A stretch of 64,000 bases of DNA, taken from positions 1 through 64,000 of the forward strand of contig JAPOYR010000002.1 in the NCBI GenBank assembly GCA_026706485.1, read 5' to 3'. The DNA is from Chloroflexota bacterium (lineage in GTDB: Bacteria; Chloroflexota; UBA11872). Below the pieces are notes generated by a model. That model searched no databases and was not told the DNA's origin. It saw only the letters and a program-made list of their open reading frames with translations. A program made the position numbers and the translations under genes. How positions within the stretch are numbered: the first letter of the stretch is position 1; every line of letters begins with the position of its first letter. Of the stretch, positions 55 to 45,726 are shown one piece after another.

Positions 55-78
55 AGGGGATTATATACTTGGCTTGAC
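55..78 (+). repeat. Left terminal inverted repeat of the IS
   Basis: 24 bp, an exact reverse complement of 2703-2726. It ends in GGCTTGAC on the inner side and starts with AGGGG on the outer side. Confidence 0.9.
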
Positions 79-113
79 AACGGGGGCGGATTCCACTACT
101 CTTAGGGTAGGTA

Positions 114-1082
114 GTGAAGGGAGCACACGACATGGCCGGACCTGGACGAGCACACCGCGAGGGCATCAGCCTGATGGAACTGGCCGACCGGTTCCCGACC
201 GAGGATGCCGCCCGCCAGTGGTTCGAGAATCAGCGCTGGCCGGACGGCGTGCGTTGCGCCCGCTGCGATGGCGACAAGGTCACCCCGGTAGCCAGCGGCC
301 AGCCCATGCCCTACCGCTGCCGCGACTGCCGCAAGTACTTCTCCGTCCGCACGAACAGCGTCATGGAGCGCTCCAAGATCACGCTGCGCAAGTGGGCGTG
401 GGGCATCTACCTGAGCACCACGAACCTCAAGGGCGTGTCGAGCCTGAAGCTCCACCGTGACCTCAACATCACGCAGAAGTCCGCTTGGTTCATGGCTCAC
501 CGTATCCGCGAAGCGTTGACCGCCGACGGTCACCTGCTGGCCGGGCCGGTCGAAGTGGACGAGAGCTATTTCGGCGGACGCGAGAAGAACCGCCACGCGA
601 AGGACCGCCAGCACGCGGGGCGCGGCACCGTCAACAAGGCTCCGGTCATCGCCATGCGCGACCGCACCACGCGCGAGGTTCGCGCCAAGGCGATCGCTAC
701 GGTCACCCGCTCCCTGCCAGCCAGCTTCATCGCCAGCAACGCGGCGCCCAACGCGATGATCTACACCGACGAGCACCCCATTTACTCGCACCTGTCCAAC
801 CACGAAACCGTCCGCCACAGCGTCGGCGAGTACGTCGCGGACCAGGCGCACACGAACGGCATCGAGTCGTTTTGGGCCATGCTCAAGCGGGCCTACCACG
901 GCACGCATCACTACTTCAGCCCGAAGCACTTGCAGCGCTACGTGGACGAAATGGCGACGCGCCAGAGCTTGCGCGAGATGGACACGGCGGACCTCATGGG
1001 TGAGCTCGCGGCCCGCATGGTCGGTCAGCGGCTCACCTACACCGACCTCACCGCCGGCGGCCCGGCGTACCCCAAGCGGTAG
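114..1082 (+). CDS. IS1595 family (ISXO2-like) transposase
   Basis: DDE transposase that moves the surrounding IS. The N-terminal zinc ribbon has two C-x2-C pairs (CARC and CRDC). The catalytic core follows: VEVDESYFGG gives the first Asp, YTDEHPIY the second, and NGIESFWAMLKR the family's N/E third position. A GTG at 114 opens the frame, but the ATG at 132 (MAGPGRAH), preceded by GAAGGGAG, is the better start and gives 316 residues, a normal length for the family. The gene lies 35 bp inside the left terminal repeat, and nothing in it looks broken. Confidence 0.92.
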   Translation: MKGAHDMAGPGRAHREGISLMELADRFPTEDAARQWFENQRWPDGVRCARCDGDKVTPVASGQPMPYRCRDCRKYFSVRTNSVMERSKITLRKWAWGIYLSTTNLKGVSSLKLHRDLNITQKSAWFMAHRIREALTADGHLLAGPVEVDESYFGGREKNRHAKDRQHAGRGTVNKAPVIAMRDRTTREVRAKAIATVTRSLPASFIASNAAPNAMIYTDEHPIYSHLSNHETVRHSVGEYVADQAHTNGIESFWAMLKRAYHGTHHYFSPKHLQRYVDEMATRQSLREMDTADLMGELAARMVGQRLTYTDLTAGGPAYPKR

Positions 1083-1168
1083 CAGCGGGAGCGCTTGTCA
1101 AGAAATGATGGACGCGCTAGCGTACGGCTATCGCGTGAACGTGATTGCCCATGGGGAGTGGATAGGCC

Positions 1169-1306
1169 ATGCGCAAACGGAGGGCCACCAAGCCAGCGCG
1201 ACGGCTACCCGTCGTCGTGCCACCGAATACCGCAACGCCCGAGGAATTGGCCCAAGCCCTGTTGCGGCCGCCGGCCCCAGCCCCGAAAGTCTCCCAACCG
1301 CGCTAA
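1169..1306 (+). CDS. Short basic protein downstream of the transposase
   Basis: A 45-codon frame beginning MRKRRATKPARRLPVVV, continuing TPEELAQALLRPPAPAP and ending in TAA. The N-terminus is strongly basic, then comes a short PEELAQALL helix and a Pro/Ala tail. It lies 86 bp after the transposase on the same strand, with GGGGAGTGGATAGGCC before the ATG. The composition looks coding, but the function is unknown. It may be an IS accessory protein, and it may equally be chance. Confidence 0.4.
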   Translation: MRKRRATKPARRLPVVVPPNTATPEELAQALLRPPAPAPKVSQPR

Positions 1307-1318
1307 CATCCTGTTAGG

Positions 1319-1409
1319 CGGAGGGCGGCGGACTCGAACCGCACCGGATGGGTTAGCATCCGGCCGTGGGTGTCCAAGACCCCGGCAGATCCTCTCTGCT
1401 TCACCCTCC
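1319..1409 (-). tRNA. Class II tRNA-like gene, anticodon UGG, with an 8/4 acceptor branch
   Basis: A cloverleaf can be drawn by hand. The acceptor GGAGGGTG pairs with CGCCCTCC (8 bp with one T-G). The D stem is GCAGA/TCTGC with a 5-nt loop. The anticodon stem GGGT/ACCC carries the loop CTTGGAC, whose centre reads TGG. The variable arm is a perfect 7-bp stem, CCGGATG/CATCCGG. The T arm GCGG-TTCGAGT-CCGC has 4 bp. The discriminator is G, followed by CCT rather than an encoded CCA. A long variable arm is normal for Ser, Leu and Sec, not for the Pro codon that UGG would read. An 8/4 branch with a long arm resembles the published 'allo-tRNA' class. The gene lies inside the IS, downstream of the methyltransferase terminator. 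Confidence 0.65.
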
Positions 1410-1411
1410 GC

Positions 1412-1455
1412 AAAACGCTAGCCGTAGGGATTGTGTGGGGAGCCTACGGCTAGCG
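1412..1455 (-). terminator. Rho-independent terminator after the methyltransferase gene
   Basis: A perfect 13-bp inverted repeat (CGCTAGCCGTAGG at 1416-1428 and CCTACGGCTAGCG at 1443-1455) with a 14-nt loop, followed on the minus strand by TTTT. It overlaps the methyltransferase stop codon at 1450-1452 and separates that gene from the tRNA-like gene. Confidence 0.75.
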
Positions 1456-2671
1456 CCCCAACTGGAGCTTGGCCCGCAGGTAGGCCATGCCGCGGTCACC
1501 CTTGACGCGGTTGCACGCGCCACAGAGCAGTTGGAGATTGCCCACGTGGTCGGTGCCGCCTGCGGCCCGCGCGATGATGTGGTCCACTTCAAGATTCTGG
1601 ATGCGAAAGTGCTCGCCGCAGCCCGCGCAATCGCCCCCCTGCTCGCCGTATAGCGCCGTCTTGTGCGCCACTGGCGGCGGGAGCGGCCCGAGGTCCGTGC
1701 GAGCTGGCCCGTCCGTGCGCGTCGTGACGTAGCCGTGGTGAAACAGTGAGCCGATGCCTAGCGGCGGCGGCTCTTGGAGCCGGAGGTTTACCAGCTCGAC
1801 GGCTTTAGGGCTGATATCGACACCCGCCCACTGGCGGTCCAGAAGTTCCGCCGCGACGCATGCCGTGGCGCAGCCGCAGAACGGGTCCAGCACGACGTCG
1901 CCAGGGTTGGAGCTGGCGGCGATCAGCCGCTGAAGGAGCGCGAGCGGTTTCTGCGTCGGGTAGCCGATGCGCTCCTTGGCGAAACCGGCAATAATCCCGA
2001 TATTCCACACGTCGCGTTGTGGCGTCCCCTTGGATCGTTCGCCGGTTGTGAGCTTGCGGGAATCGGTGACGGGGTCTTGCAACACCTTCTCGCCCTTGAA
2101 GCGCCGAAGCGTGGACTCGCTGGGCGGCTCGAAGCTCACGTTGAACGGGTAATCCCCCCCCCCCCGTGTAGAACAGCAGCACGTCGTGCATGCGCTGAAA
2201 GCGCTTCTGCTTCGCCGGCCAGCGCCGATAGGACCAGATGACCTCATTTTGAAAGTTGCGCCGCCCAAAGATCGCGTCCATCAGTAGCCTGAGATAGGGG
2301 CTCATGGTCGGATCGCAGTGGACGTAGATCGACCCCGCCGGCTTGAGCACGCGGCGCAATTCGAGCAGCCTGGCGGCCATGTAGGCGAGATACGACTTGT
2401 CGCCGTCCGTCATGGCCGCCAGCAGCACGCGATAGACGCGCGGGTGCTTGGCCTCGATGAGATTGATCCACTCCGCGTCAACGTCGGAGAGCGTCCATGT
2501 GTCGCTGAATTCCGCCCCGGCCGCCCGTGAACCGATGGGCGCGGCATAGTCGGCGTTGGAGTTGAAGGGCGGGTCCAGGTAGATCAGGTCAACGCTGGCG
2601 GCATTCATCCCCCGCAGAATCGGCAGGTTGTCGCCGGTCCACAGCGTGCGATTGCGCCAGTTGGGAGCCAT
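1450..2671 (-). pseudogene. DNA adenine methyltransferase fused to an HNH domain, frame broken at a 12-G tract
   Basis: An IS passenger gene. The N-terminal part, from ATG at 2671, holds the amino-methyltransferase motif YLDPPFNSN. The C-terminal part holds the SAM-binding motif VVLDPFCGCATA after TQKPLALLQRLI, the order of a beta-class N6-adenine/N4-cytosine enzyme. The last ~70 residues are an HNH fold: CAGC, LEVDHIIARAAGG, NLQLLCGACN. The two halves are in different frames, meeting at 12 consecutive G (plus-strand C 2154-2165). Eleven G would restore FYTGGGDYPFNV. This could be a phase-variable ON/OFF tract, a real mutation or a consensus error. The start lies 32 bp inside the right terminal repeat. 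Confidence 0.85.
2154..2165. repeat. 12-base C/G homopolymer within the methyltransferase gene
   Basis: An uninterrupted run of 12 C on the plus strand, located exactly where the methyltransferase changes frame. Eleven bases would give the full fusion protein. Tracts like this drive slipped-strand phase variation in other methyltransferase genes. Confidence 0.9.
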
Positions 2672-2702
2672 GGCGCGGAGGGTAGGCCGATTGGCTCACC
2701 GC

Positions 2703-2726
2703 GTCAAGCCAAGTATATAATCCCCT
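2703..2726 (-). repeat. Right terminal inverted repeat of the IS
   Basis: 24 bp, an exact inverted copy of 55-78. TAA follows immediately outside it. Confidence 0.9.
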
Positions 2727-45663: not shown

Positions 45664-45708
45664 CGGCACCCCCGGCGGGATTCGAACCCACGACCGTCGG
45701 CTTAGAAG
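45664..45708 (-). other. tRNA-Arg(UCU) 3' half: att junction
   Basis: The minus strand reads CTTCTAA (loop, anticodon TCT), GCCGA, a variable segment, GTGGG-TTCGAAT-CCCGC (T arm), acceptor strand CGGGGGT and discriminator G. The D arm and 5' acceptor are missing; to the right lies the end of the T4SS operon, though CCGGC just beyond the loop would still pair with the anticodon stem. This is the expected product of site-specific integration inside the anticodon loop. Core TTAGAAG at 45702-45708. Confidence 0.85.
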
Positions 45709-45726
45709 GCCGGTGGTTGCCACGAG

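What the first reader, a model, noticed from the sequence alone, without database searches (positions are those of the whole stretch)
1319..1409. A class II tRNA with UGG anticodon carried inside an IS
The sequence folds into a full cloverleaf with an 8-bp acceptor, 4-bp T stem, 7-bp variable arm and discriminator G. A long variable arm with a Pro-codon anticodon is not a normal pairing. The 8/4 branch and serine-type features match the reported 'allo-tRNA' group, which may charge serine. If expressed, it could misread CCA codons. Its place beside a transposase, a methyltransferase-nuclease fusion and a terminator on an IS is, to my knowledge, undescribed.
Basis: partly seen in the sequence, partly recalled or inferred. 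Interest (0 to 1): 0.78.

Follow-up and report, generated by a model that had tools for sequence, protein, structure and literature searches.

The report
Odd serine-type tRNA inside a transposon
A small mobile DNA element in a bacterium that probably lives in marine sponges carries a well-folded serine-type tRNA whose anticodon reads a proline codon, and about a fifth of its sister elements, in bacteria of several phyla, also carry tRNAs, often with anticodons that do not match the tRNA body and often behind a strong hairpin, so they may be moving code-altering or decoy tRNAs between bacteria.

Summary
Window 1317-1409 (-) encodes a class II tRNA with an 8/4 acceptor branch, a 7-bp variable arm, anticodon UGG and discriminator G. 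It sits between perfect 24-bp inverted repeats (55-2726) of an IS1595-family element, between the transposase and a DNA methyltransferase-HNH gene. Four related tRNAs were found: three with 76-78% DNA identity (L110, L111, L112) and one more distant (L295). Their anticodons differ (CAG, GAU, UAG, GUA) and their stems show compensatory changes. L110 and L295 also lie in IS1595 elements directly behind a methyltransferase gene.

The tRNA is not a one-off. About 15 of 75 IS1595 elements with defined ends, from several phyla of mostly sponge-associated bacteria, carry one or two tRNAs inside their repeats. Many have a serine, arginine or leucine body with a foreign anticodon. About half follow a 9-15-bp hairpin ending 3-17 nt upstream; none of 42 host tRNAs do.

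It fits the published allo-tRNA structure. Charging with serine and reading of CCA are inferred, not shown. This copy may be decaying: no target-site duplication, a frameshifted methyltransferase, one unusual transposase residue. I file it as a new variant of a known kind. The wider hairpin-tRNA cargo appears undescribed in the library searched.

The parts
55..2726 (.). IS1595-family element; perfect 24-bp terminal inverted repeats AGGGGATTATATACTTGGCTTGAC at 55-78 and 2703-2726
   Evidence: no target-site duplication at this copy
126..1082 (+). IS1595 transposase (zinc ribbon + ISXO2-like DDE domain), open frame; Pro (CCA, the only one) at residue 198, where 91 of 103 aligned transposases have Leu
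   Evidence: PF12762 and PF12760; codon census and alignment
1169..1306 (+). small ORF (46 codons incl. stop, MRKRRATKPARRLPVVVPPNTATPEELAQALLRP...), conserved in sister elements L009 and L145
   Evidence: read
1317..1409 (-). class II allo-type tRNA gene: 8/4 acceptor branch, anticodon UGG at 1374-1376, 7-bp variable arm, discriminator G at 1319
   Evidence: ARAGORN; covariation; R1 model 111 bits
1416..1455 (-). 13-bp perfect hairpin ending 6 nt before the tRNA 5' end; followed by TTTT on the tRNA strand, so also a possible weak terminator of the methyltransferase gene
1450..2671 (-). DNA methyltransferase (N6_N4_Mtase) fused to HNH nuclease; frame broken at a 12-base G run (2154-2165)

Best explanation
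It is an allo-type tRNA gene carried as cargo of an IS1595-family element. Shown by sequence: the cloverleaf, the 8/4 branch, the long variable arm, G73, the position inside the inverted repeats directly downstream of a methyltransferase-HNH gene and a hairpin, and conservation of the fold with different anticodons in four relatives. Inferred: transcription (read-through from the methyltransferase promoter past the weak terminator, or its own promoter), RNase P processing at the hairpin-tRNA junction, charging by the host seryl-tRNA synthetase, which ignores the anticodon, and occasional insertion of serine at CCA (proline) codons. The element would thus carry a low-level missense tRNA that travels between bacteria as IS cargo.
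For: Fold and covariation. Nearest host tRNA body is Ser (72%), with G73 and a long variable arm. U33 and A37 stay fixed in window, L110, L111 and L112 while all three anticodon positions vary (UGG, CAG, GAU, UAG); L295 has GUA with U33 and G37. IS cargo status is proven in sister elements by inverted repeats plus perfect 8-bp target-site duplications. Tight linkage hairpin-tRNA behind a methyltransferase gene in three divergent elements (window, L110, L295). Sister elements L170 and L171 have near-identical flanks but strongly diverged serine-type tRNAs with anticodons UAU and CAA. Published precedent: 8/4 and 9/3 allo-tRNAs insert serine in E. coli (PMC7609411).
Against: No expression data, and the promoter scan found none for the tRNA. 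The anticodon stem has a G-A mismatch. Relatives have CAG and GAU, which would put serine at CUG and AUC codons, common ones in G+C-rich genomes by general knowledge, and so be costly unless weakly expressed. Transposon-linked allo-tRNA-UAU forms did not work in E. coli translation (PMC7609411). This copy may be decaying (no target-site duplication, broken methyltransferase, unusual Pro198). L111 and L112 were not found in an IS1595 element.
Confidence: 0.42

Rival explanations
1. The hairpin plus tRNA fold is a non-decoding RNA module that serves the element: RNase P and RNase Z cleavage and the hairpin cut or insulate transcripts, or the RNA regulates transposition. The anticodon is then free to drift.
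For: Stems of 9-15 bp end 3-17 nt upstream of about half of these tRNAs; 0 of 42 host tRNAs have such a stem (Mann-Whitney p 4e-5), in elements of several phyla; L196 has a hairpin-tRNA-hairpin-tRNA tandem. Anticodons vary freely; several tRNAs have 6- or 8-nt loops or mismatched anticodon stems.
Against: U33 and purine 37 are kept in nearly all (for the window family; hand reading of the others). Orientation to the transposase is not constant. Some IS-borne tRNAs lack the hairpin (L240, L241).
Confidence: 0.27
2. Captured host tRNA genes that hitchhike in an element prone to picking up cargo and are decaying without function.
For: Bodies resemble Ser, Arg, Leu, Gln, Asn and Ala tRNAs; IS1595 elements carry varied other cargo; some tRNA-likes are degenerate (L009, L155 second copy); this copy's neighbours are damaged.
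Against: Compensatory stem changes in the window family; acceptor and T stems almost intact; at L170/L171 the tRNA slot keeps its fold although its sequence diverged while flanks stayed near-identical; about a fifth of elements carry one.
Confidence: 0.2
3. Decoy or spare tRNAs against tRNA-cleaving toxins or defence nucleases, carried beside defence-like methyltransferase-nuclease genes.
For: A methyltransferase gene, mostly fused to a nuclease domain, shares the element in four cases (window, L110, L295 adjacent; L157 farther off); diversified anticodons and a hypervariable slot look like conflict.
Against: No anticodon nuclease was identified; most methyltransferase-bearing IS1595 elements checked have no tRNA.
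Confidence: 0.08
4. Assembly or binning artefact at a contig end.
For: The element begins 54 bp from the end of contig C2, lacks a target-site duplication and has a homopolymer frameshift.
Against: Independent elements in other genomes have the same architecture with perfect duplications.
Confidence: 0.03

Closest known systems
allo-tRNA (8/4 and 9/3 tRNAs; Mukai et al. 2017, read through the review PMC7609411)
   Same: 8/4 acceptor branch, long variable arm, serine-type identity features, non-serine and highly variable anticodons, tRNA-Sec-like in covariance searches; one published case overlaps a transposon ORF
   Different: Host is very probably Chloroflexota, whereas the review names Clostridia, Proteobacteria and Acidobacteria; IS1595 cargo with defined ends; upstream hairpin; anticodon stem with G-A mismatch; not compared residue by residue with published sequences (not held)
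IS1595-family insertion sequences
   Same: Zn_ribbon_IS1595 + DDE_Tnp_IS1595 transposase, terminal inverted repeats, 8-bp target duplications in relatives, cargo genes
   Different: tRNA genes as cargo; no report found in the open library searched
tRNA-Sec (RF01852)
   Same: best Rfam match; long acceptor branch and variable arm
   Different: below gathering score (31.0 against 47 bits), anticodon UGG not UCA
tRNAs with 4-bp anticodon stems (PMC13092985)
   Same: 27-43 mismatch leaves four pairs, as here and in several other IS-borne tRNAs
   Different: reported as 5.6% of bacterial tRNAs; that paper's main text does not mention mobile elements

Membership tests
allo-tRNA | 12-bp acceptor branch as 8/4 or 9/3 | tested here: met
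   8 bp acceptor and 4 bp T stem
allo-tRNA | long variable arm and SerRS-type features (G73, Ser-like body) | tested here: met
   7-bp arm, G at 1319, nearest host body Ser-UGA 72%
allo-tRNA | anticodon not serine, variable in the family | tested here: met
   UGG, CAG, GAU, UAG, GUA
allo-tRNA | lengthened anticodon stem as in tRNA-Sec | tested here: inconclusive
   readable as 6 bp with a bulged A or 4 bp plus a G-A mismatch
allo-tRNA | serylation and insertion of serine | not testable with these tools
   needs biochemistry
allo-tRNA | homology to published allo-tRNA sequences | not tested
   original paper and its sequences not held
IS1595 family | IS1595 zinc ribbon and DDE domains | tested here: met
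   PF12762 5.6e-37, PF12760 7.9e-09
IS1595 family | terminal inverted repeats | tested here: met
   24 of 24 bp
IS1595 family | 8-bp target-site duplication | tested here: not met
   absent at the window copy, 4 of 8 bases equal; perfect in many relatives; loss of the duplication at one copy does not change the family of the element
tRNA-Sec | UCA anticodon and Rfam gathering score | tested here: not met
   UGG; 31.0 bits against 47
tRNA-Pro | proline tRNA body | tested here: not met
   host Pro tRNAs are CGGGG... class I; no Pro among the nearest bodies

The most novel reading that the evidence does not exclude
A clade of IS1595 elements that moves among many phyla of sponge-associated bacteria carries hairpin-tRNA cassettes, with serine, arginine or leucine bodies under foreign, fast-changing anticodons, as a dedicated functional module: mobile missense tRNAs that alter decoding in the host or in the element's own genes.
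Probability: 0.25. Interest if true: 0.9.

Novelty: new variant of a known kind. Interest (0 to 1): 0.7.

Why it matters
Allo-tRNAs have been known since 2017 without a clear role, and the suspected link to transposable elements, in the review read here, rested on one pseudogene. Here such tRNAs lie inside well-bounded insertion sequences, with relatives, compensatory changes and a recurrent upstream hairpin. If they are charged and used, short transposons spread missense tRNAs across phyla, which bears on how codes drift and why mistranslating tRNAs persist. If they are not used in decoding, a tRNA fold serves a transposon in another way. Both are directly testable in E. coli.

Tried and rejected
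(1) Suppressor of stop codons in transposases: the 'stops inside' reported by the genome search are terminal stops in the intact copies; rejected. (2) Recoding of the element's own transposase: the sole CCA codon of the window transposase falls on a near-invariant Leu column, and sister L009 has CTA there and a UAG tRNA-like; but the window deviates at 11 of 102 conserved columns, so a chance hit is a few percent, and the other elements tested show no comparable pattern; not claimed. (3) Degenerate anticodon arms as a general rule: the first count (49 of 70 pairs) is inflated by misalignment of three tRNAs (L152 at 6100, L157, L232), whose stems pair by hand; only a mild excess of 27-43 and 31-39 mismatches remains. 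(4) Obligate link with the methyltransferase: further methyltransferase-containing or divergent IS1595 loci have no tRNA; the link holds for a few elements only. (5) Search of plasmids and viral contigs for this tRNA: nothing beyond short chance matches. (6) Whether L111 and L112 lie in other mobile elements: not resolved. (7) The ends first found for L231, L232, L164 and L166 are not credible, so their tRNAs are not counted as proven cargo.

Full report
What is there. On the minus strand at 1409-1317 the window encodes one tRNA, the only one ARAGORN reports in 64 kb. It has an 8-bp acceptor stem, a 4-bp T stem, a 4-bp D stem, a 7-bp variable arm, anticodon UGG and discriminator G. Rfam's nearest family is tRNA-Sec, below its cut-off (27.5 and 31.0 bits against 47). 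The canonical tRNA model did not list this locus in the own-genome search. The anticodon stem reads as four pairs plus a G-A mismatch, or as six pairs with a bulged A.

The element. The tRNA lies inside an IS1595-family element, 55-2726, with perfect 24-bp inverted repeats. In order: transposase (+), a 46-codon ORF (+) conserved next to the end of sister elements, the tRNA (-), a 13-bp perfect hairpin ending 6 nt upstream of the tRNA, and a methyltransferase-HNH gene (-). This copy shows decay or assembly trouble: 54 bp from a contig end, no target-site duplication, a 12-base G run that breaks the methyltransferase frame, and Pro at a near-invariant Leu of the transposase.

Host. So the window genome is very probably Chloroflexota. 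The best relatives of the transposase lie in MAGs of many phyla, most from series that I recognise as marine-sponge metagenomes; that last point rests on my knowledge of those MAG sets, not on a tool result. The host has normal Pro (UGG, CGG, GGG) and Ser (UGA, GCU, GGA, CGA) tRNAs, so the IS tRNA is an extra.

The tRNA family. A DNA search of 201 relatives found three homologues at 76-78% identity: L110 (CAG), L111 (GAU) and L112 (UAG). Stems pair in 93.7% of cells, and seven pairs change on both sides against 2.9 in shuffles. A model built on them found a fifth, more distant member, L295 (53 bits, GUA). U33 and A37 are kept in the first four while all three anticodon positions differ. L110 and L295 are IS1595 elements whose transposases are about one third identical to the window's, yet each has a methyltransferase gene, then a hairpin, then the tRNA. 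L111 and L112 are intergenic and not in a recognised IS1595 element.

A wider pattern. I fetched about 120 IS1595 loci and located ends by inverted repeats and 8-bp duplications. Of 75 elements with defined ends, about 15 carry one or two tRNAs inside: window, L009, L110, L152, L155, L157, L165, L170, L171, L189, L196, L240, L241, L260 and L295. T-arm motifs occur 19 times in 160 kb of non-transposase element DNA and 17 times in 509 kb of flank, where many are ordinary host tRNAs. A strict tRNA detector gave no hit in 383 kb of shuffled DNA. Thirty DDE_Tnp_1 loci (94 kb) gave one ordinary tRNA-His and 30 methyltransferase loci (107 kb) gave none; by the same detector 15 of about 120 IS1595 loci gave a tRNA within 1.5 kb of the transposase.

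Bodies and anticodons. Compared with 56 host tRNAs, the window, L110, L170 and L171 bodies are nearest to Ser; L164 (UCC), L166, L196 (GAC), L240 (GCU) and L241 (GAC) are nearest to Arg, and L196 (ACC) is Arg- or Lys-like; L165 (CGC) is nearest to Leu. These anticodons do not match the bodies. L155 (GUU) looks like an ordinary Asn tRNA, so mismatch is common but not universal. L164 and L166 have no credible element ends.

A recurrent hairpin. A stem of 9 bp or more lies in the 75 nt upstream of 12 of 24 tRNAs examined, ending 3-17 nt before the tRNA; in 42 host tRNAs the longest stem scores 8 (Mann-Whitney p 4e-5). In L196 the unit is repeated: hairpin, tRNA, hairpin, tRNA. In L009 and L189 it is not behind a gene end, so it is not simply a gene terminator. 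The 24 include L111 and L112 and four tRNAs without proven element ends.

A fast-changing slot. L170 and L171 are sister elements, 83% identical over 2.9 kb. DNA on both sides of the tRNA is largely 90-95% identical or more, but the tRNAs are strongly diverged outside the T arm, with anticodons UAU and CAA and intact folds. Replacement by another tRNA or rapid compensated change would both explain it.

How it may work. I commit to a serine-charged missense tRNA carried as IS cargo, at 0.42. Identity as an allo-type tRNA on an IS is well supported; transcription, processing, charging and decoding are inferred. The main doubt is cost: relatives with CAG or GAU anticodons would put serine at common codons. 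A non-decoding hairpin-tRNA module is the strongest rival.

Against what is known. Allo-tRNAs with 8/4 or 9/3 branches, variable anticodons and serine insertion in E. [quoted passage not shown]). tRNAs with 4-bp anticodon stems are 5.6% of bacterial tRNAs (PMC13092985). Six searches of the open library found no report of tRNA cargo in IS1595 or other insertion sequences. The library lacks most subscription papers, including the primary allo-tRNA paper, so this is not proof of novelty.

Noticed in passing
window 2154-2165: 12-base G run (minus strand) in the methyltransferase-HNH gene; 11 would keep the frame. Assembly error or phase variation.
   Followed up: partly
window 45665-45712 (-): 48-bp copy of the 3' half of the host tRNA-Arg(UCU) gene (intact copy at G000:C13:330253), probably the attachment-site remnant of an integrative element.
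   Followed up: partly
window 717-719 (+), transposase residue 198: Only CCA codon of the transposase lies at a near-invariant Leu position; the same column is CTA in L009, whose tRNA-like has a UAG anticodon. Possibly chance.
   Followed up: partly
window 1169-1306 (+): Small basic ORF (MRKRRATKPARRLPVVVPPNTATPEELAQALLRP...) conserved next to the IS end in L009 and L145; function unknown.
   Followed up: no
L070 4446-4533 (-) and 6301-6372 (+): Viral contig with an IS1595 transposase and two odd 8-bp-acceptor tRNA-likes (UAU and UGC); the second follows a 14-bp hairpin with a large structured loop.
   Followed up: partly
L174 2370-2480: tRNA-like with UAG anticodon embedded between the arms of a 15-bp inverted repeat (CGAATCGACCTGCCG...CGGCAGGTCGATTCG).
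   Followed up: no
L185 6240-6360: Possible further degenerate tRNA-like with a T-arm motif inside the closest named sister element (Chloroflexi IRC3_bin_22).
   Followed up: no
L302 66-141: Host tRNA-Phe copy with AAA anticodon and changed acceptor beside the intact tRNA-Phe(GAA).
   Followed up: no
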